From: Caldicellulosiruptor saccharolyticus DSM 8903
GTDB taxonomy: Bacteria; Bacillota; Thermoanaerobacteria; Caldicellulosiruptorales; Caldicellulosiruptoraceae
Direction of reading: 5' to 3'
Length of the DNA: 64,000 nt
Assembly (NCBI RefSeq): GCF_000016545.1
Contig: NC_009437.1
Location: forward strand, 1,591,501 to 1,655,500
Shown here: one piece after another, positions 13,556 to 26,441 of the stretch
Position numbering within the stretch: position 1 is the stretch's first letter
Layout: each line of letters starts with the position of its first letter
The notes under the pieces: model-generated
Databases searched by the model: none
What the model saw: only the letters and a program-made list of their open reading frames with translations
Told to the model about the DNA's origin: nothing
Program-made: the position numbers and the translations under genes

Positions 13556-13618
13556 ACTTTTGTTCTTCACCAGAATATGATAAAATTAAGATGAAAGTAA
13601 AAGCAGCTGCCCCCTCTT

Positions 13619-13649
13619 AAGTAAAACTAACAAGAAGGGGGAGTTAAAA
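13619..13649 (+). promoter_or_regulatory. Paired GAGTNNNAC-type leader, coiled-coil gene
   Basis: AAGTAAAAC at 13619 and GAGTTAAAA at 13641, 22 bp apart, the second directly before the ATG at 13650 and joined to the ribosome site AAGGGGGAG. First member of the leader family described in the findings. Confidence 0.45.
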
Positions 13650-14366
13650 ATGGAGATGAGTCAAATGGAAAATGAAAGGGAAAGAAGAAAAGAAAAAGTT
13701 AGAGTTTACATCAGTCCCACCAGTATTGACCTTTTGAGGATTGAATTTAACTCTCATCTTCAGGATCTCAAGCGTGAAATCTCAGAAGTCAGGACAGAAT
13801 TTGATACAAAACTGAAAACTTTGGAAGTCAACATCAAAAGTGAATTTAACCAGAAAATTAGTGAACTTTCAAATCAAGTTGCAAACCTGCAAAAAGAAAC
13901 TGTTTATCAAATCACATGTTTTAGAAGCGATACAACAACAGAACTGAGTAATATCAAACAAGAAAATACAAAAGAGTTTTCAGGTGTCAGAAAAGAGATA
14001 GCTGACATAAAAAATGAATTTGCAGATTTCAAGCAGGAAGCCGCAAAAGAGTTTGCAAATGTCAGAAAAGAGGTAGCTGACCTGAGGAATGAGTTCATGC
14101 AGTTCAAGGAAGAAACAGCAAGAGAATTTTCAAATGTGAGAAAAGAGATAACCGACTTGAGGAATGAGTTTATACAGTTCAAAGAGGAAACAGCAAAGGA
14201 GTTTGCAAATGTAAGAAGGGAAATAACAGACCTGAGAAATGAAGTTGTGAATATCAGAAATGAAATTGCAGACATAAAAAATACCTTTAGATGGAACACT
14301 ATAGGCATCATTGCAGCACTTCTAACAGGATTTGCGGGAATTATCACAGCAATTGTTTTAAAGTAG
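13650..14366 (+). CDS. Coiled-coil protein with C-terminal membrane anchor
   Basis: 238 aa. After a short basic N-terminus the protein is almost entirely heptad coiled coil, built from four or five similar blocks of about 25-28 residues (each with EFANVRKEITDLRNEF-type sequence and FKEETAKEF linkers). One membrane helix at the C-terminus (about 214-236, IGIIAALLTGFAGIITAIVL) anchors it, leaving the coil in the cytoplasm. The layout resembles DUF1640/CCDC90-type and other tail-anchored bacterial coiled coils. It could be a scaffold, but the sequence does not show its partner. Confidence 0.8.
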   Translation: MEMSQMENERERRKEKVRVYISPTSIDLLRIEFNSHLQDLKREISEVRTEFDTKLKTLEVNIKSEFNQKISELSNQVANLQKETVYQITCFRSDTTTELSNIKQENTKEFSGVRKEIADIKNEFADFKQEAAKEFANVRKEVADLRNEFMQFKEETAREFSNVRKEITDLRNEFIQFKEETAKEFANVRREITDLRNEVVNIRNEIADIKNTFRWNTIGIIAALLTGFAGIITAIVLK

Positions 14367-14555: not shown

Positions 14556-14765
14556 ATGTTCAGGAAAGTGAAAAATCCAGCCAAACCTGAGGAAATGCTT
14601 CTTCAGCTTAAAAAAGAACTTCACAGATTGAGAAGACTCTATAACGAAGCTTTTGCTTACTTTTACAGAACTAATGACTACGAATTTGTAAAAAAAGTCG
14701 ATGAGAAGTACTACGAAATTCTTAAAGCATACACTATGTACAAAGATTATCTGTCTCAAAAGTGA
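14556..14765 (+). CDS. Small helical protein co-transcribed with the tyrosine recombinase
   Basis: 69 aa, basic and helical (LLQLKKELHRLRRLYNEAFAYFY). GGGGGC lies 8 bp before the ATG. Its TGA overlaps the GTG of the recombinase (GTGA), so the two are translationally coupled. The position suggests a recombination accessory or regulatory factor, but no excisionase-type motif is evident. Confidence 0.65.
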   Translation: MFRKVKNPAKPEEMLLQLKKELHRLRRLYNEAFAYFYRTNDYEFVKKVDEKYYEILKAYTMYKDYLSQK

Positions 14766-15640
14766 GGCTTGATGATAAAATGCTAAAAGAGTTTGAAGAA
14801 TACCTGAAAACTCAGGATTTTACAGAAAACACAATAAAAAGCTACACAAAAGACGTTGAACTTTTCATGCGCTGGTATATTGATACTACTGGTCAGGAGT
14901 TTTTACCAGAGAATTTAACAGAGTTTGACCTTGTTGAATACAAATCATACCTTTTGCGTCAAAACCTAAGACCAAGTACAGTAAATCGAAGTATTATATC
15001 TCTAAGAAAATTTGTGCATTTTCTACTGGACAGAGGGTTACTCAAAAAAGACATATCAACAAGACTAAAGCAGGTAAAAGACACAACAAGGAATCTCTCC
15101 CCAGTAGTTTTAGACAAAAAAGATATATACAAATTCCGTCGCACCGTACATCAGTTTGGAAAGGCAAGAGATATTGCTTTTGTTGAACTTTTACTCAACA
15201 CAGGAATGAGAATATCAGAAGCTATAAACCTTAAACTTGAAGATATTGAGATATCAGAAAGGAAAGGCAAAGTGAAAATCTGGGGCAAAGGCAGAAGTTA
15301 CAGAGAAGTGCCTTTAAACTCGGATGCAAGAAAATACCTATCGGAATACCTGAAAAAGCGACCCTACTCAGAAACAAACTATCTTTTTGTTACTTCAACA
15401 GGCAAACCATTGACACGCAATACAGCATATAAAATTATACTCAAGTATGCCAAGCTTGCTTCAGTTGATTTGCATCCACACATGCTCAGACATTTCTTTG
15501 CACAGACGCTAATTGATAAAGGACTGAATTTATACGATGTACAACAACTGCTGGGACATCAGAGGATAGAAACAACTTTGAGATACAAAAAACCCAATGT
15601 TCAGCTTCAGGAAGAAATGGTAGAAAACCTATTAGAATAG
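14762..15640 (+). CDS. Tyrosine recombinase (XerC/XerD-like integrase)
   Basis: 292 aa. The N-terminal SAM-like core-binding domain (FTENTIKSYTKDVELFMRWY) is followed by the catalytic domain. All active-site residues are visible: Arg in NTGMRISEA, Lys in IWGKGRSYREVPL, HMLRHFF (HxxR), LGHQRIETTLRY (His and the nucleophilic Tyr). The short, Xer-like size differs from large ICE integrases. The GTG start at 14762 is chosen for its overlap with the preceding stop; an ATG at 14780 is possible. It may act on this island or resolve dimers of it. A recombination site was not identified. Confidence 0.85.
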   Translation: MRLDDKMLKEFEEYLKTQDFTENTIKSYTKDVELFMRWYIDTTGQEFLPENLTEFDLVEYKSYLLRQNLRPSTVNRSIISLRKFVHFLLDRGLLKKDISTRLKQVKDTTRNLSPVVLDKKDIYKFRRTVHQFGKARDIAFVELLLNTGMRISEAINLKLEDIEISERKGKVKIWGKGRSYREVPLNSDARKYLSEYLKKRPYSETNYLFVTSTGKPLTRNTAYKIILKYAKLASVDLHPHMLRHFFAQTLIDKGLNLYDVQQLLGHQRIETTLRYKKPNVQLQEEMVENLLE

Positions 15641-18034: not shown

Positions 18035-18994
18035 AATATCCTCCAGTTATATTGTTATTGCTTTCTTGAGCCATGATACTTTTCATAATCTTTTGTCCCA
18101 GTGGATGTTTTGTTACAAAAACAATATAATGACTTGTCTGATTATTTTCTTTTTTAAAACAAAATGGAACTACATAACGGGTATAATTATTTGAAAAATA
18201 CTTTACAAACTCATCTAAAATTATCATTTCTTTATCATGACTATATATATTCGAATTTTGCAGCCTTTTTCTTAAATTGTTCAAATTTTCTTCTCCAAAT
18301 ATTTCTGAAACAGTTTCAACTACCTTATTATTAAAGATAGCAGCTTGAATACGGTTGTAATTAAAGAAGAAAATACATTCTGACATCTTTTTATCGACAA
18401 TCATATCCACAAGGCTTTTTGAGATTCCACTGTAGCCCCAAGGATCCAGGAAGACAAACATAGGTCCATCTATTTGTTTTATAACATCTTCAATTTCTTT
18501 GCTGGGCATTTCATAGTTTGTAATGTAAATTTGAAATGGACTGTTAAGGTTTTTTAACTCTCGTTGGATATTTTCAAACTTCCTCTCAATGTTTTTATAA
18601 AGCTTCTCTACAAAATCTTTGTTTTTATCGTTAAACCAAAGAACTAATTTGTTTTTTACCTTATCTAACAGTTTTTCATTTTTCAAGGTGTTCTCTAAAA
18701 TAGTGAGAGGCGTAGAAATATTACCATCTTCGTAACAACCTGGTCCACAAAACAAATCAATGTAAAAAATTTTACCATTCCAGTAATGAGAGATAATATT
18801 CAGCCATGCTATAAAATAGTCTGTAACAAGTTTAATCTTTATTTTCGACAAATCTGTTTGTTCATTATAAAATTCGTTATCCACTGTTATTTTTACCTCC
18901 TTAACTTTTTATTTTTTTGGTAAAATTATATCAAATTTTAAGGATTATTAAAATCTAATTTATACTGTTTTATACTGTGAAAGGAGCTGATACA

Positions 18995-19486
18995 ATGCCT
19001 GTTTATAAGCACAAAGCTGACAGAGAGGTTGAAAAATTTGTGTATGATTGGGGAGCTGCCACATTGAGGCATCTTTCAGAGCTTGTACATCCATATCCAG
19101 AACAAAAACTTAAAAGGTTAATAAAGGGCTTAAGAGTTGAGGAAAGGGATGGTGTCTACTATGTTCCGTTTAGAAGGCTAAAACCTGATGTAGAAAGAAG
19201 AAGACTTGCTTTTCTTGACTTTATGGTTGATTTTCTACAAGACAGGGTAACACTTTATTACCCGGCAGATTTTCCTTTTGTTTCACTTGTTAAGACAACA
19301 AAAGGCAAACTTGCATATGTTTCGGTGATATTCCCTGGCGAAGAGGAACTTGTGTCAGAGCTAATTAACATGAACCCGCCAGAAAGTGTAATCTGTGTTC
19401 TACAGGACAAACAGCAAAAAGACAAAATAAAGCTTAAATCGAAAATCGTAAAGTTCTACTTGAAAAATGGTGAAGAAGTTGTATAA
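18995..19486 (+). CDS. Small protein with N-terminal helix-turn-helix-like region
   Basis: 163 aa from the ATG at 18995 (AAAGGAG 8 bp upstream). The N-terminal half, with FVYDWGAATLRHLSELV, resembles a winged-helix reading head as in DUF5697-type proteins of clostridial mobile elements. The C-terminal half (LAYVSVIFPGEEELVSELI, SVICVLQDKQQ, KIVKFYL) alternates strand and helix, like a degenerate nuclease-type or Rossmann fold. The family name is a guess from pattern; mobile-element association is supported by context. Confidence 0.55.
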   Translation: MPVYKHKADREVEKFVYDWGAATLRHLSELVHPYPEQKLKRLIKGLRVEERDGVYYVPFRRLKPDVERRRLAFLDFMVDFLQDRVTLYYPADFPFVSLVKTTKGKLAYVSVIFPGEEELVSELINMNPPESVICVLQDKQQKDKIKLKSKIVKFYLKNGEEVV

Positions 19487-19506
19487 TATTGTTATAGAAA
19501 AAGTGT

Positions 19507-19534
19507 TTGCAGAAGTCAAAAAATTGGGTATAAT
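19507..19534 (+). promoter_or_regulatory. SigA-type promoter
   Basis: TTGCAG, 16 bp, TATAAT, followed by a second ATATAAT. It points into the hairpin and leader array at 19.55-19.69 kb. Confidence 0.55.
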
Positions 19535-19554
19535 ATAATCAGGAACATATTTCA

Positions 19555-19583
19555 GAGTCCTACCTTATCAGGGAGAGTAAAGC
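19555..19583 (+). promoter_or_regulatory. Paired GAGTNNNAC-type leader without a following gene
   Basis: GAGTCCTAC at 19555 and GAGTAAAGC at 19575, 20 bp apart, just downstream of a promoter and running into a strong hairpin. No start codon follows, so it may be the leader of a lost gene or part of an RNA. Confidence 0.4.
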
Positions 19584-19635
19584 CACAGAGAGTTTGCAGT
19601 TTAACTTGCAAATTATCTCTGTGGCTTTCTTATTT
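19581..19635 (+). terminator. Strong hairpin, terminator or attenuator
   Basis: AGCCACAGAGA (19581-19591) pairs with TCTCTGTGGCT (19616-19626), with an inner TTTGCA/TGCAAA stem, then a T-rich stretch. It sits between the 19507 promoter and the gene at 19694, so it could attenuate transcription or end a small RNA of about 90 nt. Confidence 0.6.
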
Positions 19636-19665
19636 TTCAAAGAGCTTTTCTAAGAGCTTTTCTCG

Positions 19666-19693
19666 GAGTCCCACCAAAAGGAGTGAGTTCACA
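19666..19693 (+). promoter_or_regulatory. Paired GAGTNNNAC-type leader
   Basis: GAGTCCCAC at 19666 and GAGTTCACA at 19685, 19 bp apart, the second directly before the TTG start at 19694. Confidence 0.45.
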
Positions 19694-19915
19694 TTGAAAA
19701 GACTTATTGGGAGTTTGCTGCTTAGAAACTACCAATTAATGGAGTCCCACAAAATTATTGAGTTTGCTGATACAAACTGTATAGCAGTCAAGTACATTTT
19801 CAGGGTCAAAGATGAGTCAAACCGTAGTATGCTGCTCAGTACAACACAGTATTTCAGACTTGGACAACGACTACCATCCTGTAGTGAGGTATGGAAAGCT
19901 CTCGGTGGAAAATAA
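19694..19915 (+). CDS. Small hypothetical protein (73 aa)
   Basis: A TTG start placed exactly as in the other leader-controlled genes of this island. Basic protein with a mid-region of strands (IIEFADTNCIAVKYIFRV) and LLSTTQYFRLGQRLPSCSEVW. It is followed at once by a GGTGGGG/TCTCCACC hairpin and the next paired leader, the same punctuation as its neighbours. Family not recognised. A second frame overlaps (19812-19997) but lacks the leader pattern. Confidence 0.45.
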   Translation: MKRLIGSLLLRNYQLMESHKIIEFADTNCIAVKYIFRVKDESNRSMLLSTTQYFRLGQRLPSCSEVWKALGGK

Positions 19916-19942
19916 CGGTGGGGTTCTCCTCTCCACCTTCTG

Positions 19943-19971
19943 GAGTTATACCAAACAGGAGGGAGTCAAAC
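19943..19971 (+). promoter_or_regulatory. Paired GAGTNNNAC-type leader
   Basis: GAGTTATAC at 19943 and GAGTCAAAC at 19963, 20 bp apart, the second abutting the ATG at 19972. A GGTGGGG...CTCCACC hairpin lies just upstream at 19916-19937. Confidence 0.5.
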
Positions 19972-20249
19972 ATGATGAGTTCAACAATCAAACTTAGACT
20001 CGGTCAGGTATTTTTTTGACAAGAGAGGTTGCAAACAAAGTACCAGAACATGAAATTCTCTGGTTCCTTGGCAGACATCAGGAAGGCGATTAGGGAGATA
20101 TGCCAGAGGAAGATAAAAAAATCAACGACTGGGCAGTGGAAAGAGGAGAAAGAGTCATCTCAAAATATCGCACAGAAGCAGGCGATATATACATCATCAC
20201 CGAACCTGACCGCTCCTACACTACAGTCTTATTTGTGTGGGAATATTGA
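19972..20249 (+). pseudogene. GDWGD-type plasmid/mobile-element small protein, with a frameshift and an amber codon
   Basis: The reading is MMSSTIKLRLGQVFF, then a TGA caused by a seven-T run (20011-20017). One extra T gives TREVANKVPEHEILWFLGRHQEGD, an in-frame TAG at 20091, then GDMPEEDKKINDWAVERGER and EAGDIYIITEPDRSYTTVLFV to 20249. Known plasmid-related small proteins have GDWGDL-EED, so the TAG stands where Trp (TGG) is expected. It is a decayed copy, unless the last 49 codons (from ATG 20100, with GGGAG upstream) are expressed alone. Confidence 0.55.
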
Positions 20250-20295
20250 TGCAAGGGCTGTTGCCCTTGCTTTTGGAGTAATACTCTTCAAAAGC

Positions 20296-20327
20296 GAGTC
20301 AACAACGCAGGCAAGTCACCCCCTTTT
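20296..20327. repeat. Dispersed repeat, copy 1
   Basis: GAGTC followed by AACAACGCAGGCAAGTC and CCCCCTT, almost identical to 22030-22060. It contains one GAGTNNNAC-like box but does not precede a start codon. Confidence 0.6.
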
Positions 20328-20379
20328 TTAAACATGGGTGTGTTGGGGAGAACGACAGAAAAGAAAGGGGGTGATATGT

Positions 20380-20526
20380 TTGGGTAGTGAATTTCTACTC
20401 TTTGCATTAAAAGCCGGAACAATCATAGTAGTTACATTTTTAGTAGTTATTTCAAAAGCTAATGTTGAAATAGAAATTAGACTTAATCCGCTAAAGGTCA
20501 AAATAAAAAAGAAAGTAGTTAGGTAA
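20380..20526 (+). CDS. Small membrane protein (48 aa)
   Basis: The TTG start is favoured because GAAAGGGGG lies about 8 bp upstream. One hydrophobic helix (LLFALKAGTIIVVTFLVVI) is followed by a short basic-amphipathic tail (EIEIRLNPLKVKIKKKVVR). The stop codon lies inside a 13-bp perfect hairpin. It has no recognised family and is one of three tiny single-pass proteins in this island. Confidence 0.5.
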   Translation: MGSEFLLFALKAGTIIVVTFLVVISKANVEIEIRLNPLKVKIKKKVVR

Positions 20527-20544
20527 TTCCATACCTAACTACTT
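20513..20544 (+). terminator. 13-bp perfect hairpin over the stop codon
   Basis: AAGTAGTTAGGTA, loop ATTCCA, TACCTAACTACTT. There is no T run after it, so it may be an RNA-stabilising or attenuating hairpin rather than a classical terminator. Confidence 0.5.
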
Positions 20545-20675
20545 CCCCACTACCTAAACACCTGCGTTTTCATAAATCTTAAATTCAAAAACTCCCCAAC
20601 ACACCCTACCTTCATATTATACCACATTTTATTAGTTTGAGATACAACAAATATTTTGAAAGAAGGTGTTGCTAA

Positions 20676-20870
20676 ATGTCAATCATTTTATTTATCCTAA
20701 ACAACCTTTTTGCTCTTTTGCTACTGGGCTTTAGCTTGCTTGTAGTTTTCTGTGCAGTATTTAAGCGTAACATCAAGTGGCAGTTTAAAAGCTTTTCGAT
20801 TGAAATCACCACAACAAAAGACGAAAACATAGACAACGACATTCAGGAACAACACTATCCAGCCCAGTAG
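20676..20870 (+). CDS. Small membrane protein (64 aa)
   Basis: One long hydrophobic segment (LFILNNLFALLLLGFSLLVV) and then a cytoplasmic or external tail (KWQFKSFSIEITTTKDEN). GAAGGTG lies 10 bp before the ATG. Similar in layout to the 48-aa protein upstream: TM helix followed by a short strand-like tail. Function not recognised. Confidence 0.55.
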   Translation: MSIILFILNNLFALLLLGFSLLVVFCAVFKRNIKWQFKSFSIEITTTKDENIDNDIQEQHYPAQ

Positions 20871-20913
20871 TAAATAGCCTTTTGGCAGGGTTTTCTCTCT
20901 TTCCCCTGCCTGT

Positions 20914-20947
20914 GAGTAAAACTAATACAAAAAAGGGGGAGTTTAAC
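20914..20947 (+). promoter_or_regulatory. Paired GAGTNNNAC-type leader, recT
   Basis: GAGTAAAAC at 20914 and GAGTTTAAC at 20939, 25 bp apart, 1 bp before the ATG at 20949. A GGCAGGG...CCCCTGCC hairpin lies just upstream. Confidence 0.5.
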
Positions 20948-20948
20948 A

Positions 20949-21983
20949 ATGAAGAGTATTGTAAGAAAGGAAGCAGACAACATTATTGAAAGCGTAGTTT
21001 ACACTTCAGAAGACGGAAAAGAAATTAAACTTACGTTTGACACAGTTAAACGCTTTTTAGTCAGTGGGGATTCTTCAAAAGTATCCGACGAGGAAGTTGT
21101 ATTATTTATGAAACTGTGTGAAGCCCAGAAGTTAAACCCATTTAGAAGAGATGTTTATTTAATCAAATTTGGTGACGAACCAGCGAGCTTAGTCGTCAGC
21201 AAGGACGTTTTCATTCGTAGAGCCCAGAAAAGTGGACTTTGCAACGGCTGGAGGGCAGGCGTCATTATACAGCATGACGACGGAAGTGTTGAAGAGAGAC
21301 AAGGCACACTTGTTTTGCCAGATGAAAAACTTGTAGGCGGCTGGGCAGAAGTTTTTCGAAAAGACTGGCAGGTACCTTTAAAAATTACAGTGACTCTTTC
21401 AGAATATCTCAGGAGAAGAAAAGACGGACAGCCCATGAGAAGCTGGCAGCAAATGCCGGCTACCATGATTCGAAAAGTAGCTTTGGAACAAGCTTTGAGG
21501 GAAGCGTTCATGGAAGAACTGCAGGGGCTCTACGGCGCAGAGGAGATGGGAGCAGAACTGGATGAAACTCCAATGGTACAGCCAGCAGTAGTGTCTGAAC
21601 TCAAAGAAGTTGAAAACAAACCTGCTGTGATTGCCCAGCCAGTAGAAGTTGAACAGCCAGAAGAAGTTCAAACCTCTCAAGAAGAAGTCAAACCTTCAGA
21701 AGAGTCAAAACAAACCATTCAAGTATCAATTCAGGATAATCAAAGCGATGAGTATCAAACACTGTATATCAGAGAAGTGAACATCATTAAATCCAAAAGC
21801 GGCAAAGATTATCTCAAAATTATTGCTTACACAGACGATGCTGAAAAGAAAATTCTGTATGCTGAAGCAAACGAAAAAACCACCCAGCTTGAGAAAAACG
21901 CAGTTATTAAAGCTAAAGTTTCAAAAGAGAGTAATTACCACATGCTTATTGATTTCAGCAAAGTAGAAGTTGCAAGTGTATAA
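20949..21983 (+). CDS. recT: RecT/Bet-family single-strand annealing recombinase
   Basis: 344 aa. The N-terminal 190 residues match the Bet/RecT core: VVLFMKLCEAQKLNPFRRD, YLIKFGDEPASLVVSKDVFI, then VPLKITVTLSEYLRR and WQQMPATMIRKVALEQALRE. It anneals complementary strands in phage-type recombination. The C-terminal 150 residues add an unusual Glu/Pro-rich linker and a strand-rich domain (LKIIAYTDDAEKKILYAEA), longer than typical Bet (about 260 aa). Together with the exonuclease two genes downstream and SSB upstream it makes a recombineering-type module. Confidence 0.85.
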   Translation: MKSIVRKEADNIIESVVYTSEDGKEIKLTFDTVKRFLVSGDSSKVSDEEVVLFMKLCEAQKLNPFRRDVYLIKFGDEPASLVVSKDVFIRRAQKSGLCNGWRAGVIIQHDDGSVEERQGTLVLPDEKLVGGWAEVFRKDWQVPLKITVTLSEYLRRRKDGQPMRSWQQMPATMIRKVALEQALREAFMEELQGLYGAEEMGAELDETPMVQPAVVSELKEVENKPAVIAQPVEVEQPEEVQTSQEEVKPSEESKQTIQVSIQDNQSDEYQTLYIREVNIIKSKSGKDYLKIIAYTDDAEKKILYAEANEKTTQLEKNAVIKAKVSKESNYHMLIDFSKVEVASV

Positions 21984-22012
21984 AAATGGGAGAGGTTCTC
22001 CCTCTCCCTCTG

Positions 22013-22037
22013 AGTTAAACCAATTAATGAGTCCAAC
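22013..22037 (+). promoter_or_regulatory. Paired GAGTNNNAC-type leader without start codon
   Basis: GAGTTAAAC at 22013 and GAGTCCAAC at 22029, 16 bp apart, after a GGGAGAGG/CCTCTCCC hairpin that follows recT. Leads into the 22030-22060 dispersed repeat, not into a gene. Confidence 0.4.
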
Positions 22038-22060
22038 AACGCAGGCAAGTCGCCCCCTTT
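22030..22060. repeat. Dispersed repeat, copy 2
   Basis: AACAACGCAGGCAAGTC and CCCCCTTT, matching 20296-20327. Confidence 0.6.
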
Positions 22061-22099
22061 CAGAGTATTTCAACAACAAACTTTCTGGCAAATGCCTCA

Positions 22100-22131
22100 G
22101 AGTTATACCAATTAAGAAAGGAGAGTTAAAC
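22100..22131 (+). promoter_or_regulatory. Paired GAGTNNNAC-type leader
   Basis: GAGTTATAC at 22100 and GAGTTAAAC at 22123, 23 bp apart, 1 bp before the ATG at 22133; GAAAGGAG sits between. Confidence 0.5.
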
Positions 22132-22132
22132 C

Positions 22133-22363
22133 ATGCTAAGAGTTGTCAACAATGGGGAAGTTGTACTTATAACATTTGTTAACGGCAAGATTAGACTAAC
22201 TGTAAAGAAAAACGGAGCTGTGATTAAGGTAGTTGACGATCAACTGGTAAAAAACGCACTAAAACAAGTACGGGAATTTGTCGATGAAGGCACTTTTATT
22301 ATGGTAACAGACGTGTTAAGAGCGGTCTTAAGAGAAAAGAAAAAAGAAAATGTACCAGCGTAG
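22133..22363 (+). CDS. Small hypothetical protein (76 aa)
   Basis: Basic protein starting with three short strands (LRVVNNGEVVLITFVNGKIRL) and ending with helices (ALKQVREFVDEGTFIMVTDVLRAVLREKKKE). No family recognised. It sits between recT and the exonuclease with the same hairpin-plus-leader punctuation, so it may be a regulator or inhibitor within the recombination module. Confidence 0.6.
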   Translation: MLRVVNNGEVVLITFVNGKIRLTVKKNGAVIKVVDDQLVKNALKQVREFVDEGTFIMVTDVLRAVLREKKKENVPA

Positions 22364-22394
22364 CTTTTTGGCAGGGACTTGTCCCCTGCCTCAG

Positions 22395-22425
22395 AAGTTA
22401 AACAATTAAGAAAGGGGAGTTGAAC
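22395..22425 (+). promoter_or_regulatory. Paired GAGTNNNAC-type leader, exonuclease
   Basis: AAGTTAAAC at 22395 and GAGTTGAAC at 22417, 22 bp apart, just before the ATG at 22427, after a GGCAGGGAC...TCCCCTGCC hairpin. Confidence 0.5.
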
Positions 22426-22426
22426 A

Positions 22427-23392
22427 ATGGTTGAGCTTGATGTAATGAAAGGGAGTTATTCAAAACTTCAGCTTTTCGAAAGGTGTCAAAGAGCTTTTTA
22501 TTTCAAGTATGTCAAAAACATGGAGTATACAACGCCTGCAATGGAGTTTGGCAAAATTATTCATGAAGAACTGGCAAAATTTTTGACTACTGGTGCAGAA
22601 GGCAAAAACGTTAAACAGTTCATTACCCCAAAAGTCAGACGTTATGTTGGTGTTAATCCTGAATATGTTGAGTTGGAACTCAAATTTAATTTACCATCTG
22701 GAACAGAATACACCGCTGTGATTGACCTTTTCGAAAATAATACGGCTAAAGTGTTAGACTGGAAAACAGGCTGGCAGAAAGAAGCAGACATCAGGCAGCT
22801 TTACATCTACGCATATGCTCTCAAGAAAAATGGAGTAAAACCTGAAAAATTGTCATTCTTCTATTTGAGGTTTGACAAAGAAGATGAGTTTGCTATGAGT
22901 ACCGATAAACTTAATGAGACAATTGACTGGATGGACAGAATTGAAGATTCTATGAATGAGAAGCTGTTTCTGTACTCTTCTGAAGGTGAAGAAGAATTTG
23001 AGAAGAACTACTCATCATGCAAAGGTTGCCCTTATGCAAAGTTATGTTTAGGCGAAGACATTGCAAGCAAAGAGAAAGCAATTGAAATAGCTATGTATAT
23101 TGATGAACTTGAAGCGAAACTAAACGCAGCTCGGGAAGCACTAAAAATCTATTTAGAACAAACAGGAGAAGAACTCATAACAGATTCAGGAGTGTGGCGC
23201 TTGACTCCAGTAAATAGTTTTAGCTTTGACACTCGTAAAGTTTGGAAATATATTAAAAGTCTTGGAAAGGATCCAATTGAATTTGCAAACTTCACTTTAA
23301 CATCACTTAAAAAACTTAAGATTTCTGAAGATATCTTAGAACAACTTGGTGAGAGAAATGTAACTTATCAACTCAGAAAGACCAAAGAGTAA
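22427..23392 (+). CDS. PD-(D/E)XK exonuclease with Fe-S cysteines (Cas4/AddB-like)
   Basis: 321 aa. It opens with YSKLQLFERCQRAFYFKYV and GKIIHEEL, the usual start of RecB/Cas4-type nucleases. The catalytic Asp and Lys are in AKVLDWKTGW, with DIRQLYIYAYAL as the QxxxY motif. One Cys at about residue 19 plus CKGCPYAKLC near 200 give the four-cysteine pattern of an iron-sulphur cluster seen in Cas4 and AddB. It is the likely 5'-3' exonuclease partner of the RecT recombinase. Confidence 0.8.
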   Translation: MVELDVMKGSYSKLQLFERCQRAFYFKYVKNMEYTTPAMEFGKIIHEELAKFLTTGAEGKNVKQFITPKVRRYVGVNPEYVELELKFNLPSGTEYTAVIDLFENNTAKVLDWKTGWQKEADIRQLYIYAYALKKNGVKPEKLSFFYLRFDKEDEFAMSTDKLNETIDWMDRIEDSMNEKLFLYSSEGEEEFEKNYSSCKGCPYAKLCLGEDIASKEKAIEIAMYIDELEAKLNAAREALKIYLEQTGEELITDSGVWRLTPVNSFSFDTRKVWKYIKSLGKDPIEFANFTLTSLKKLKISEDILEQLGERNVTYQLRKTKE

Positions 23393-23438
23393 AAAAACGG
23401 GGTTGAGAAGGCTATCCCTTCTCTTCCCTCTCCTTTCG

Positions 23439-23465
23439 GAGTAAAACCGAAAGGGGGAGTAGAAC
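23439..23465 (+). promoter_or_regulatory. Paired GAGTNNNAC-type leader, radC
   Basis: GAGTAAAAC at 23439 and GAGTAGAAC at 23457, 18 bp apart, abutting the GTG at 23466, after a GAGAAGG/CCCTTCTC hairpin. Confidence 0.5.
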
Positions 23466-23948
23466 GTGAAAAACCTTAGTTTTTTCGATGAAAAGAAGTC
23501 TGAACCAAGGTGTGTTGCACAAAAATATAAGTTGTTACTTGTCAAAGAACAATCATACTTGTACAACAATCAACTAAAAAACGTTAACTCTGCAGTAGAA
23601 TTTCTAAAAAAACATCTTTTGTTACACTGCGAACCTGAAGAAGTTTTCACTGTTATATGTCTTGACCTCCAGTTAAACGTAACAGCGGTATTTGAAGTAG
23701 CAAGAGGTACAATTAATACTGCACTTGTAAGTACACATGAAATTTTCAAAAGAGTACTATTAACAAATTGCAACAGCATAATCATTGCACATAACCATCC
23801 TGGCGGTTCTGAAAGACCATCAATGGATGATATCAACACAACAAAGAGAATTAAAGAAGCTGCGCAACTACTGGACATAAAGCTAAACGACCACATAATC
23901 ATAACTGAGAACGCTTATTTTTCCTTTGCAGAGGCAGGAATATTATAG
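23466..23948 (+). CDS. radC: RadC-like JAB/MPN-domain protein
   Basis: 160 aa, the C-terminal MPN part of RadC without its helix-hairpin-helix N-terminal domain. HNHPGGSERPSMDD is the JAMM metal motif (H-x-H...D), with a conserved VSTHEIFKRVLL before it and LDIKLNDHIIIT after it. Short RadC proteins of this kind are frequent on plasmids and phage. Its biochemical role is still unclear in general. Confidence 0.85.
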   Translation: MKNLSFFDEKKSEPRCVAQKYKLLLVKEQSYLYNNQLKNVNSAVEFLKKHLLLHCEPEEVFTVICLDLQLNVTAVFEVARGTINTALVSTHEIFKRVLLTNCNSIIIAHNHPGGSERPSMDDINTTKRIKEAAQLLDIKLNDHIIITENAYFSFAEAGIL

Positions 23949-23975
23949 GAGAGGTGCTCCCTCTCCCACTTGTCG

Positions 23976-24044
23976 GAGTTTTACTCATAATGTGAATGTG
24001 AGTAAACAAAAAACCAGAGTAAATAAGAAGGGAGAGGGAGTGCC
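23976..24044 (+). promoter_or_regulatory. Extended GAGTNNNAC-type leader, primase (four boxes)
   Basis: GAGTTTTAC 23976, GAGTAAACA 24000, GAGTAAATA 24017 and GAGTGCCAT 24038, spaced 24, 17 and 21 bp. The last overlaps the ATG at 24045. A GGAGAGG/CCTCTCC hairpin precedes. Confidence 0.45.
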
Positions 24045-25163
24045 ATGATGAAAAATGAACTTATTGACATCAGGATGGATGATGTGCTTTGCTTGTTGAG
24101 ACTTAACATTGTAAAACGAAACGGTAATGAGTTGAACCTTTATTGCCCTAAGTGTGATGTACACAAGATGAAGGGAGAAGGACACCTGTATATCAACGTC
24201 CACAAAAACACGTTTTTCTGCCACAGATGTGGTATTGGCGGCAATGCTCTTCAACTCTATGCGTGGTTGAACAATATAGATACGAAAGAGGCTTACAAAG
24301 AACTGGTACAGATACTTACAAAAGGCACAAAAAGAGCCCGAAAAGCTGTTGCAGAACCTACCGCAACATATGACGTTAATGCTACTCAGACCGAAAATCT
24401 TGCACCAGTAGAACAAAGAGATTTAGTTTACCATGAATTCTTGAAACTGTTGGACCTTGATGAAAAGTACAGGGAACACTTACTTTCTCGTGGTGTCACC
24501 GACACATTTATTAAATTTAAAGGCTACAGAAGTTTAAACGTGAAAGATGAGAGGAAGAGAAAAGAAATTTGTAAGACTTTAATTGAAAAGGGTTTAACAC
24601 TTGAAGCAGTTCCCGGGTTCTTCAAGCACTCTAACGGTGAGTGGGACTTTGTTCCATACAACGGTTTCTGTATACCTGTCGTTAGTTTAGAAGGCATGAT
24701 ACAGGGATTGCAGGTTAGAATTGTAGGCGATACAAATAGTGGCAAATACAGGTGGTTCTCATCAGGCAATATTTCTACTGGGACAAGCGCTAAAAACTTT
24801 GTACATGTTGTAGGTACATTTAACGAAGAGAAATACAAAAGAGTATTCATAATTGAGGGTGCTCTCAAAGCTGATATATGTTCCTATTTGATGGATGGAG
24901 AACTTTTCGTTGCTCTGCCGGGTGTAAACAGCTCACACGACGAAGCTGTACAGATTGTAAAAAAGCTTGGATTGAAAAATGAAGTTTTCATAGTCTTTGA
25001 TAACGACATAATTGAAAAGAAAGAAGTTCAAGAAGCATATGAAAGACTAAAAAGAAAGTTTAAAAACGAAGGTATAACTGCAACAAGGCTGGCGTTTAAT
25101 CTCAACTACAAGGGATATGACGATTATCTTATCGCTTCTAAAATAAGAGGAGAGTGTGCCTAA
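24045..25163 (+). CDS. Primase-like protein: CHC2 zinc finger plus TOPRIM
   Basis: 372 aa. The N-terminus has a zinc-binding domain (YCPKCDVHK, FFCHRCGIGGNALQL), as in DnaG and phage primases. The C-terminal third is a TOPRIM-like domain with Glu in VFIIEGALKAD and the Asp pair in VFIVFDNDI. It lacks a helicase part. It would prime replication of the element. ATGATG offers two starts; the first is listed. Confidence 0.75.
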   Translation: MMKNELIDIRMDDVLCLLRLNIVKRNGNELNLYCPKCDVHKMKGEGHLYINVHKNTFFCHRCGIGGNALQLYAWLNNIDTKEAYKELVQILTKGTKRARKAVAEPTATYDVNATQTENLAPVEQRDLVYHEFLKLLDLDEKYREHLLSRGVTDTFIKFKGYRSLNVKDERKRKEICKTLIEKGLTLEAVPGFFKHSNGEWDFVPYNGFCIPVVSLEGMIQGLQVRIVGDTNSGKYRWFSSGNISTGTSAKNFVHVVGTFNEEKYKRVFIIEGALKADICSYLMDGELFVALPGVNSSHDEAVQIVKKLGLKNEVFIVFDNDIIEKKEVQEAYERLKRKFKNEGITATRLAFNLNYKGYDDYLIASKIRGECA

Positions 25164-25188
25164 AAAATACTCTCCTCTTACTTTTTTT
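25144..25188 (+). terminator. Rho-independent terminator after the primase gene
   Basis: TAAGAGGAGAGT and ACTCTCCTCTTA form a 12-bp stem, followed shortly by a run of seven T. It ends the leader-controlled gene series. Confidence 0.85.
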
Positions 25189-25189
25189 G

Positions 25190-25218
25190 TTGCAATTGAA
25201 AAAAGCATAGGTTAAAAT
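25190..25218 (+). promoter_or_regulatory. SigA-type promoter
   Basis: TTGCAA, 17 bp, TAAAAT, about 55 bp upstream of the gene at 25275. Confidence 0.55.
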
Positions 25219-25274
25219 TGCCTTATTAAAACTCTTCGAAATAATTTTCGTGTAACCGAAAGGGGCGGAGACCA

Positions 25275-25679
25275 ATGAACAATAATTTTTCTCAAGATGA
25301 AAATGCAATTTTCAGACTTATCTTTTCGGACTCCAAAGAGATACTCTTCTTACTGAAAAATGTGGCAAAATTTAGTTGGGTCGACAGGATACAAAAAGAT
25401 TCCATTGAAGTTATTTTAGTAGACTACGATAACGAAAATGTTCTTAAATATAAGCCTGACGTAATAGCTAAAGTAACAATAGAAAACAACACAGCATATA
25501 TTTTCGTCTTTTTTGTAAGTAAAGTTCCAGAATGCGGTATGAGAAACATAATATTAAATAACATGCTGCTTTTCTGGGAGAAAAAGATAAAGGAAGGAAC
25601 AGACAAAATTCCACCAATAATACCCCTTGTATTGTACAATGGCAAAGAAATATGGACTGAACCGAGAGAGATATATTAA
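25275..25679 (+). pseudogene. Truncated Rpn/PD-(D/E)XK-type transposase-like nuclease
   Basis: 134 aa. It contains FRLIFSDSKEILFLLKNVA, YKPDVIAKVTIENNTAYIFVFF and IPLVLYNGKEIWTEP, the N-terminal pattern of the recombination-promoting nuclease (Rpn, PDDEXK) family. Those proteins usually have about 300 residues, so the C-terminal half is missing. After the stop another frame continues briefly (ILKAFESAIEIKQK) into the promoter array, suggesting decay by frameshift and deletion. Confidence 0.55.
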
Positions 25680-25697
25680 AAGCTTTTGAAAGCGCTA

Positions 25698-25790
25698 TTG
25701 AAATAAAACAAAAAATACGATACAATATATTTAAATTCTTTGCCAGAAATACACTTTTTAGGTGTTTATAAAGAATGTCAAATTTTTTTT
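25698..25790 (+). repeat. Promoter plus conserved leader unit 1
   Basis: TTGAAA-17 bp-TACAAT (25698-25726), then TTTGCCA and the conserved block TAGGTGTTTATAAAGAAT, GTCAAA and a T run (25759-25790). Unit 2 begins directly after it. Confidence 0.6.
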
Positions 25791-25791
25791 G

Positions 25792-25885
25792 TTGCAGTTT
25801 TAAAACTGTAGTGGTATAATATACTCAAGAGAATGATTGCCATAAGTGTATGAAATAGGTGTTTATATAGAATGTCAAATTTTTT
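25792..25885 (+). repeat. Promoter plus conserved leader unit 2
   Basis: TTGCAG-17 bp-TATAAT (25792-25820), TTGCCA, then TAGGTGTTTATATAGAAT, GTCAAA and a T run (25856-25882). A hairpin and a 34-aa gene follow. Confidence 0.65.
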
Positions 25886-25900
25886 ACAAAAGTAAAACAA

Positions 25901-25925
25901 AAGGCAGGTAACAACCTGCCCTTTT
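25901..25925 (+). terminator. Hairpin with T-rich tail before the microprotein gene
   Basis: AAGGCAGGT, loop AACA, ACCTGCCCTTTT. It sits between leader unit 2 and the 34-aa gene and may terminate or attenuate. Confidence 0.6.
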
Positions 25926-25949
25926 CTGTAAAAAAGGAGAGTTTGAACA

Positions 25950-26054
25950 ATGCTTGCACATCCACTGGTTGTTGTGTTTCTCATATGGTATATTCCTCTA
26001 ATACTGCTCAAAATATTAGCAGTTTTAAAGGGTGAAGATGATTCGGAATTTTAG
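25950..26054 (+). CDS. Membrane microprotein (34 aa)
   Basis: An ATG preceded by AAAGGAGAGTTTGAACA, the same ribosome-site/box sequence used by the leader-controlled genes upstream. The product is a basic-free hydrophobic helix (PLVVVFLIWYIPLILLKIL) and an acidic tail GEDDSEF. Too short for family recognition. The shared leader and the promoter 130 bp upstream support expression. Confidence 0.45.
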   Translation: MLAHPLVVVFLIWYIPLILLKILAVLKGEDDSEF

Positions 26055-26065
26055 TTAATACCCAG

Positions 26066-26157
26066 TTGATACATTTGTTTGGTTATGATAAAATATAGTC
26101 AAATGGTTGGCAAAACTATACTTTTTAGGTGTTTATACAAAATGTCAAATTTTTTTT
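26066..26157 (+). repeat. Promoter plus conserved leader unit 3
   Basis: TTGATA-17 bp-TAAAAT (26066-26094), TTGGCA, then TAGGTGTTTATACAAAAT, GTCAAA and a T run (26126-26157). Confidence 0.65.
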
Positions 26158-26204
26158 GAAGGGGGTATCTAAAAAGAAGTAAAGGGCACAGCGAAAATGT
26201 GTTT

Positions 26205-26364: not shown

Positions 26365-26441
26365 TGGTGCGCCCGAGAGGACTCGAACCTCCGGCACATG
26401 GTTTAGGAAACCATTGCTCTATCCTGCTGAGCTACGGGCGC
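26365..26441 (-). tRNA. tRNA-Arg (anticodon CCU)
   Basis: On the minus strand: acceptor GCGCCCG pairs with CGGGCGC, D arm GCTC...GAGC, anticodon arm ATGGT-TTCCTAA-ACCAT (anticodon CCT), T arm GGAGG-TTCGAGT-CCTCT. CCA is encoded. The 3' end faces the accessory region at lower coordinates, the usual geometry of an integration target. No second copy of the tRNA 3' end was found in the window. Confidence 0.95.

What the first reader, a model, noticed from the sequence alone, without database searches (positions are those of the whole stretch)
19916..25920. Each leader is preceded by a small hairpin after the previous gene, making uniform gene punctuation
Hairpins such as GGTGGGG/CTCCACC (19916), GGCAGGG/CCCCTGCC (20884), GGGAGAGG/CCTCTCCC (21990), GGCAGGGAC (22369), GAGAAGG/CCTTCTC (23404), GGAGAGG/CCTCTCC (23948) and GGCAGGT/ACCTGCC (25903) sit between a stop codon and the next paired box. 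Most lack a T run. The order gene, hairpin, box, box, gene repeats, as if genes were assembled as interchangeable cassettes or processed into single-gene RNAs.
Basis: partly seen in the sequence, partly recalled or inferred. Interest (0 to 1): 0.55.

Follow-up and report, generated by a model that had tools for sequence, protein, structure and literature searches.

The report
Paired RNA leader boxes, mobile element
A family of self-transferring DNA elements in heat-loving bacteria puts the same short paired signal before nearly every gene of one operon and a hairpin after it, and in sister elements the same signal is built into transcription stop signals, which suggests that one unknown factor switches the whole operon through RNA.

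Summary
The hairpins and paired boxes are real. In recT operons of nine related elements the box pair occurs 127 times on the coding strand, 0 on the other, about 0.05 per shuffled region. Of 61 leaders behind a called gene, 57 have a GC-rich stem at the previous stop codon (13% of control windows); none has a T tract. The hairpin evolves with the gene before it, the boxes with the gene after it, and gene neighbours change. RNA processing was not testable.

The boxes matter more than the hairpins. They come in two codes: AGTNNNAC in this window's element type, AGTTWGC in the sister type, not mixed above background. In the sister type, box 2 forms the base of an intrinsic terminator stem in 22 leaders, in one register, while the rest of the stem covaries. 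The window has the same arrangement at 19555-19637. I read this as an RNA regulon of an integrative conjugative element: most likely antitermination plus translation control by an element-encoded factor. The factor is unidentified; direction (activation or repression) is inferred. Rfam has no match.

The parts
19506..19534 (+). promoter-like site TTTGCA-17-TATAAT before the operon
   Evidence: consensus scan, 10 of 12; read back
19555..19584 (+). attenuator box pair: box 1 GAGTCCTACC 19555-19564, box 2 GAGTAAAGCC 19575-19584
   Evidence: same arrangement in L035, L036, L037
19582..19637 (+). intrinsic terminator; its 5' arm begins with GCC, the last letters of box 2; stem to 19625, T-rich tail to 19637
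19666..19692 (+). box pair before the 73-aa gene (start TTG 19694), no hairpin in front
19694..19915 (+). 73-aa protein, candidate regulator (not shown); orthologue in all nine elements
19917..19937 (+). hairpin GGTGGGG/CTCCACC
19943..19971 (+). box pair before a gene that is frameshifted in this copy
20276..20303 (+). box pair before the small-ORF cassette
20884..20910 (+). hairpin GGCAGGG/CCCTGCC
20914..20947 (+). box pair with SD, before recT
20949..21983 (+). recT (single-strand annealing protein)
   Evidence: Pfam RecT 5.2e-44, TIGR01913
21988..22008 (+). hairpin GGGAGAGG/CCTCTCCC
22012..22037 (+). box pair followed by a remnant of the small-ORF cassette
22100..22131 (+). box pair with SD before the 76-aa gene (22133-22363), no hairpin in front
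22370..22390 (+). hairpin GGCAGGG/CCCTGCC
22395..22425 (+). box pair with SD before the exonuclease gene
22427..23392 (+). PD-(D/E)XK / Cas4-like nuclease
   Evidence: Pfam 3.6e-18
23405..23423 (+). hairpin GAGAAGG/CCTTCTC
23439..23465 (+). box pair with SD before radC; the SD can pair with CTCCTTTCGG upstream of box 1
23466..23948 (+). RadC-like JAB protein
   Evidence: Pfam 2.1e-37
23948..23966 (+). hairpin GGAGAGG/CCTCTCC, overlapping the radC stop codon
23976..24007 (+). box pair in the primase leader (start 24045)
24045..25163 (+). CHC2 zinc finger / DUF3854 primase-like protein
   Evidence: Pfam
25144..25190 (+). intrinsic terminator with T run at the operon end, overlapping the primase stop codon
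   Evidence: 14-bp stem, read back
25903..25920 (+). hairpin GGCAGGT/ACCTGCC before a 34-codon frame (25950-26054); no box 1, so an incomplete unit outside the operon

Best explanation
The window holds the replication/recombination operon (73-aa protein, RecT, exonuclease, RadC, primase) of an integrative conjugative element. Shown: the operon starts with a promoter-like site, a box pair and an intrinsic terminator whose first stem letters are the end of box 2; further genes then carry their own box pair, with box 2 at the SD or start codon, and their own hairpin at the stop. Inferred: an element-encoded factor, probably a small RNA-binding protein acting as a dimer on the two boxes, binds the leader RNA. 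At the head it takes box 2 away from the terminator and lets polymerase through (antitermination); at each gene it changes access to the SD or start. The hairpins belong to the 3' end of the preceding gene. They lack a T tract, so they are not expected to terminate; most likely they end and insulate each reading frame (stop of ribosomes, block of reinitiation, protection or trimming point of a 3' end), so that each gene depends on its own boxes. Because units share boxes, they can recombine there and be gained or lost as box-box-gene-hairpin.
For: Box pairs 127 on +, 0 on -, shuffles about 0.05. Type B: 22 of the 25 terminator-like stems that a register-free scan found next to box 2 begin exactly at box position 5 (AGCC); the other three are weak 6-bp stems. 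Pairs 5-9 of those 22 stems show several pair types each (pairs 1-4 are fixed there by the selection pattern). Window type: box 2 GAGTAAAGCC overlaps GCCACAGAGA..TCTCTGTGGC plus T tail, same in three sister copies. Type B spacing is exactly 14 nt in 56 of 88 pairs, at terminators (16 of 22) and elsewhere (40 of 66) alike. Two codes: type A pair pattern only in G000, G007, G008; type B pattern only in G001, G002, G005 (in a CRISPR array), G006, G012 of 13 family genomes. G004 has no strict type B pair match but 48 AGTTWGC on the coding strand against 3. Hairpin 57 of 61 vs 13%. Hairpin follows the upstream gene, boxes the downstream gene. Element: T4SS coupling protein, TraG/VirB4-like ATPase, M23/SLT, actin-like protein, tyrosine integrase.
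Against: No binding factor is identified; the 73-aa candidate has no family and no clear fold match, and its co-occurrence with the boxes is shared by other genes of the element. Direction is inferred: AGTT is unpaired beside the terminator stem, so a factor that reads AGTT plus paired GCC could stabilise termination. SD sequestration by the stretch before box 1 is not general: type A 28 leaders, cognate no better than non-cognate (p 0.44); type B 44 leaders, better (p 0.015). In type A only one attenuator per element was seen and box spacing is loose (17-25 nt). 19 of 57 hairpins have an A run in front, i.e. could end antisense transcripts.
Confidence: 0.6

Rival explanations
1. Same boxes and factor, opposite sign: the factor is a repressor that keeps the operon silent in the integrated state by holding the terminator and blocking SD/start, like a translational repressor bridging two sites.
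For: Box 2 or a third box lies next to SD or start; a quiescent element gains from silence; AGTT is unpaired and GCC paired both in the box 1 mini-hairpin GGC-AGTTW-GCC of type B and beside the terminator stem.
Against: Letters of box 2 are in the terminator stem, which usually means that binding and termination exclude each other (as in ANTAR targets, PMC3369931, passages).
Confidence: 0.25
2. Boxes are DNA sites (operators, or recombination anchors used by RecT and the exonuclease) and have no role in RNA; leaders look alike because of gene conversion.
For: RecT and exonuclease are in the operon; neighbours change at leaders; shared boundary sequences as recombination sites were proposed for lambdoid phages (PMC3029335, passages).
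Against: 0 of 127 pairs on the other strand, fixed register with terminator stems, stem covariation, two codes with the same architecture.
Confidence: 0.08
3. The hairpins are processing sites: an RNase cuts at each, giving single-gene RNAs with a hairpin 3' end and a box leader 5' end.
For: Each gene has its own 5' boxes and 3' hairpin and they evolve with it; no T tract in 57 of 57. Compatible with the best explanation as an added step.
Against: No RNA data; no conserved sequence or loop in the hairpins (41 distinct 5' arms in 57).
Confidence: 0.25
4. The hairpins act on the boxes: their pyrimidine 3' arm is an anti-SD that switches between the hairpin and the downstream SD as the upstream gene is translated.
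For: Strong pairing in some leaders, e.g. B_G002 72773 and B_G006 12420 at -26.2 kcal/mol, radC leader in ICE1/ICE4 at -17.3.
Against: Not general: p 0.44 in type A, 0.015 in type B; in several of the strongest cases the anti-SD is outside the hairpin.
Confidence: 0.1

Closest known systems
[quoted passage not shown] PMC12699233, passages)
   Same: Short asymmetric repeat just before many start codons, one orientation, mainly non-structural genes, overlapping the SD; an extra element upstream whose consensus differs between subclusters; function unknown.
   Different: Different sequence; there the inverted repeats did not look like RNA hairpins; no terminator-embedded copies were described in the passages seen; phage, not conjugative element.
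ANTAR two-hairpin antiterminator targets, EutV (PMC3369931, passages)
   Same: Two small RNA sites in tandem with constrained spacing ahead of an intrinsic terminator, reused at several genes.
   Different: ANTAR needs hexaloops with A1 and G4; boxes here are AGTTWGC or AGTNNNAC. ANTAR proteins lie outside the elements and occur in all 13 family genomes, with or without boxes.
Antitermination in conjugative elements: Tn916 canT (PMC11658703) and pLS20 conAn (PMC8955417), passages
   Same: Terminators inside conjugative elements overcome by an element-encoded system near the operon start.
   Different: Those are processive systems loaded near the promoter. Here the site is repeated before nearly every gene and is part of the terminator itself.
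Short conserved boundary sequences of lambdoid phages (cited in PMC3029335, passages; HK620 paper itself not read)
   Same: Repeated sequences between genes at which modules may recombine.
   Different: Here the repeats also have regulatory anatomy and two codes.

Membership tests
Integrative conjugative element | conjugation genes (coupling protein, T4SS ATPase) | tested here: met
   T4SS-DNA_transf 3.9e-70 and P-loop_TraG 1.5e-17 in L064
Integrative conjugative element | site-specific integrase | tested here: met
   Phage_integrase 7.5e-40 at 14762-15640
Integrative conjugative element | att repeats at both ends | tested here: inconclusive
   tRNA-Arg at 26365-26441, but no second copy of its 14-30 nt end in 1551501-1655500
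Start-associated sequences (SAS) | conserved short repeat within a few nt of start codons, one orientation | tested here: met
Start-associated sequences (SAS) | 13-bp consensus GGGATAGGAGCCC | tested here: not met
   box sequences differ throughout; consensus
ANTAR-controlled leader | paired hexaloops with A1 and G4 | tested here: not met
   boxes AGTTWGC and AGTNNNAC with other loops
ANTAR-controlled leader | ANTAR protein that varies with the leaders | tested here: not met
   13 of 13 family genomes carry it, none within the fetched element spans
BglG/LicT-type antitermination | CAT RNA-binding domain protein | tested here: not met
   PF03123 in 0 of 13 family genomes; positive in 4 of 14 controls
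Known Rfam RNA family | covariance model match at gathering score | tested here: not met
   only a tRNA in the window; in five sister loci tRNAs and one HEARO at L042 15478-15711, none of them the leaders
Integron gene cassettes | IntI integrase and attC sites | not tested
   considered only because gene plus hairpin recalls a cassette; the integrase at 14762 hit general phage integrase models
conAn/canT processive antitermination | polymerase modified once and resistant to later terminators | not testable with these tools
   needs expression assays

The most novel reading that the evidence does not exclude
These elements encode a new family of sequence-specific RNA-binding regulator that reads a two-box RNA code at every gene and terminator of its operon. 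The code has switched (AGTTWGC versus AGTNNNAC) between sister element families, so that two elements could live in one cell without cross-talk: an RNA-level analogue of phage immunity types. The 73-aa protein is the first candidate.
Probability: 0.4. Interest if true: 0.8.

Novelty: new variant of a known kind. Interest (0 to 1): 0.62.

Why it matters
If right, a conjugative element controls its replication and recombination genes almost entirely after transcription starts, with one reiterated RNA site that serves both as antitermination and as translation switch. That gives a natural set of more than 100 variants of one RNA code, in two specificities, to find the binding factor and its rules. 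It also shows how per-gene regulatory leaders and 3' hairpins turn genes into exchangeable units, and offers a test case for the unexplained SAS elements of mycobacteriophages.

Tried and rejected
Close relatives by peptide patterns in genome contigs: 30 stretches matched, none confirmed; whole-genome search was used instead. A consensus leader with 3 mismatches found only one copy in 13 family genomes, too strict. RecT and exonuclease in phages and plasmids: only distant matches, all below 60% identity; no leaders were examined there.

Spread of the codes: type B pattern in 398 phylum genomes, 3 with matches, all of this genus, one of them the CRISPR array; in genome contigs 92 stretches, 80 listed, with single matches except L177; in viral contigs 11 stretches, single matches; type A in viral contigs 43, single matches. 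None of these listed loci but L177 was box-rich. A RecT locus in another family of the class (L117) has plain SDs and no boxes.

SD sequestration as a general rule: rejected for type A, partial for type B. Trans-acting complementary RNA: GGCWAACT occurs 1 to 5 times per type B region and box position 5 varies, so a single antisense RNA is unlikely but not excluded. CsrA, T-box and riboswitch ideas were dropped from recall, without a dedicated test beyond Rfam. Fold of the 73-aa protein (AlphaFold2, pLDDT 90.8, helix, three strands, helix): no Foldseek match at E 0.001 or better in PDB or viral models; VIA-align best Z 5.1 and weak RAD52-like rows at Z 3.8, not enough to name a fold.

Cautions on my own numbers: 8 of the 127 regex leaders lie inside called frames of 100 aa or more; one (21685 in recT) is plainly false, the others mostly reflect over-long mechanical starts or a broken gene. 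The 61 leaders and are chosen by different rules. Pairs are not independent and no p-value was computed. One search selects AGTTAGCC and GGCTTT, so only its pairs 5 and beyond are informative; one search is the scan free of that choice, and one more attenuator (B_G006 7272) was missed by it. In one search, three of 28 terminator calls are type A, of which two are weak 6-bp stems.
Full report
WHERE IT IS. The window is bases 1591501-1655500 of a single-contig genome of 2,970,275 bases; by recall that size is Caldicellulosiruptor saccharolyticus DSM 8903, no call names it. The stretch 18977-25163 encodes DUF5697, a 73-aa protein, RecT, a 76-aa protein, a PD-(D/E)XK/Cas4-like nuclease, RadC and a CHC2/DUF3854 primase-like protein. 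Upstream lie a tyrosine integrase, an M23/SLT protein, a secretion ATPase, an actin-like protein, a conjugative coupling protein and a TraG-like ATPase. It is an integrative conjugative element; I could not fix its ends.

RELATIVES. A second, 73% identical RecT sits in the same genome, and others in G008 (92%), G007 (62%), G001, G004, G006, G002 and G012. I fetched these regions and compared nine recT operons: four of the window's kind (type A: ICE1 = window, ICE2 = second copy, ICE3 = G007, ICE4 = G008) and five sister ones (type B: G001, G002, G004, G006, G012).

THE OBSERVATION. The box pair is the stronger signal: 127 pairs on the coding strand and 0 on the other in the nine operons, against a shuffle mean of about 0.05 per region. 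At least one of the 127 is false (21685, inside recT). Hairpins: 57 of 61 leaders with a called upstream gene, 13% in 1220 control windows, 0 of 57 with a T tract, the 5' arm starting at a median of -1 relative to the end of the stop codon. The arms are purine-rich (84%) but their sequences differ, 41 distinct 5' arms in 57.

TWO CODES. Type A: GAGTNNNAC, then GAGTNNAAC at the start codon. Type B: AGTTWGC twice, often within GGC-AGTTW-GCC. In 18-kb type B loci AGTTWGC occurs 41-48 times on the coding strand and 3-5 on the other; in type A loci 2-7 and 2-4. The type A box occurs 10-20 against 1-3 in type A loci and 0-3 against 0-4 in type B loci. Pair patterns: type A in 3 of 13 family genomes, 20 places; type B in 5 of 13, 27 places, controls 0. 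The single place in G005 is in a CRISPR array. Type B spacing is exactly 14 nt in 56 of 88 pairs. Outside the family nothing comparable appeared except a 4.2-kb contig filed under a Bathyarchaeota MAG (L177) that carries the same RecT operon, 19 boxes on one strand and 0 on the other; I suspect misbinning.

TERMINATORS. A scan for stems starting anywhere in the first 14 nt of box 2 gave 28 terminator-like calls in 128 leaders. Of 25 in type B, 22 start exactly at box position 5, so that AGCC of AGTTAGCC pairs with GGCT before the T run; the other three are weak. In those 22 the pairs 5-9 occur as two to five different pair types each, e.g. the attenuator behind the DUF5697 gene reads AGCCCCGAT/GTCGGGGCT, AGCCATGTAAAAG/CTTTTACATGGCT and AGCCTTGATGGGT/ACTCATCAAGGCT in three elements. 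A -10-like hexamer lies within 110 nt upstream in 17 of 22 (a loose test). In the window one such unit exists: promoter-like 19506-19534, boxes 19555-19584, terminator 19582-19637, and the same in the three other type A elements. This ties the boxes to RNA.

GENES. Most remaining pairs precede genes: 88 of 128 have a start of a frame of 40 aa or more within 60 nt of box 2, 12 fell in neither class. In type B a further box sits directly before the start codon at 17 places, one of which lies inside a gene. Pairing of the stretch before box 1 with the SD is strong in some leaders but not a rule: type A n = 28, p = 0.44; type B n = 44, p = 0.015.

UNITS. Comparing leaders by neighbour gene, the hairpin part is alike when the upstream gene is the same (0.59) and not when only the downstream gene is (0.31, background 0.29); for the box part it is the reverse (0.39, 0.60, background 0.46); 17, 29 and 650 pairs. 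Pairs are not independent. So the heritable unit is box-box-gene-hairpin, and neighbours change at leaders in several places (for the 0, 1 or 2 extra units before the exonuclease gene). RecT and a nuclease in the same operon could drive such exchanges; that is inference.

MECHANISM. Shown: sequence anatomy, strand bias, two codes, register with terminators, stem covariation, unit behaviour. Inferred: a trans-acting factor, its dimeric reading of two boxes, antitermination and translation control, and the insulating role of the hairpins. The 73-aa protein is conserved in all nine elements and, in 37 genomes of the class, was found in the eight box-bearing genomes plus one borderline hit (G014, E 0.009), but other genes of the element co-occur too. 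No fold or family names it.

KNOWN OR NEW. Rfam has no match for the leaders. Searches of the open library listed no paper that, by title and abstract start, describes such leaders in Caldicellulosiruptor; subscription papers and preprints are not held. The nearest descriptions are SAS/ESAS of mycobacteriophages, ANTAR leaders and canT/conAn; each differs in a tested or visible feature. I therefore call it a new variant of a known kind.

Noticed in passing
window 20300-20640; L037 10544-10830 and 11481-11780 and similar in other elements: A small-ORF cassette (62-65 aa, apparently one membrane segment, C-terminus ..KIKKKVVR) with complementary ends, a hairpin at the stop and, on the other strand, a 17-bp stem with T tail at 20548-20509; it looks like a type I toxin-antitoxin pair with a 3' antisense RNA, function not tested. 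A deleted remnant is at 22034-22061.
   Followed up: partly
L103 (G005:C1:2410000-2425000): A CRISPR array with 214 repeats in a genome without the element; 11 of 211 spacers align to these elements over at least 30 nt at 91% or more, four of them perfectly over the full spacer. One (sp114) targets the recT leader itself.
   Followed up: partly
window 19972-20250: The 90-aa gene intact in ICE2-4 is frameshifted in the window copy.
   Followed up: no
ICE2 70560-71789 (minus strand; G000 second copy): The exonuclease gene of the second copy is interrupted by what looks like a mutator-type transposase gene, judged from its sequence only.
   Followed up: no
window 25740-26158: Three copies of a 52-nt repeat (AGGTGTTTATA.AATGTCAAATTTTTT) between the operon and tRNA-Arg.
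   Followed up: no
window 13618-13650: A box-like leader (TAAGTAAAACTAAC..GGGGGAGTTAAAA-ATG) also precedes the coiled-coil gene at 13650, outside the recT operon.
   Followed up: no
L177, 4200 bases: Contig filed under a Bathyarchaeota MAG with a type B recT operon; probably misbinned.
   Followed up: partly
L042 15478-15711 (-): HEARO RNA inside a type B element region.
   Followed up: no
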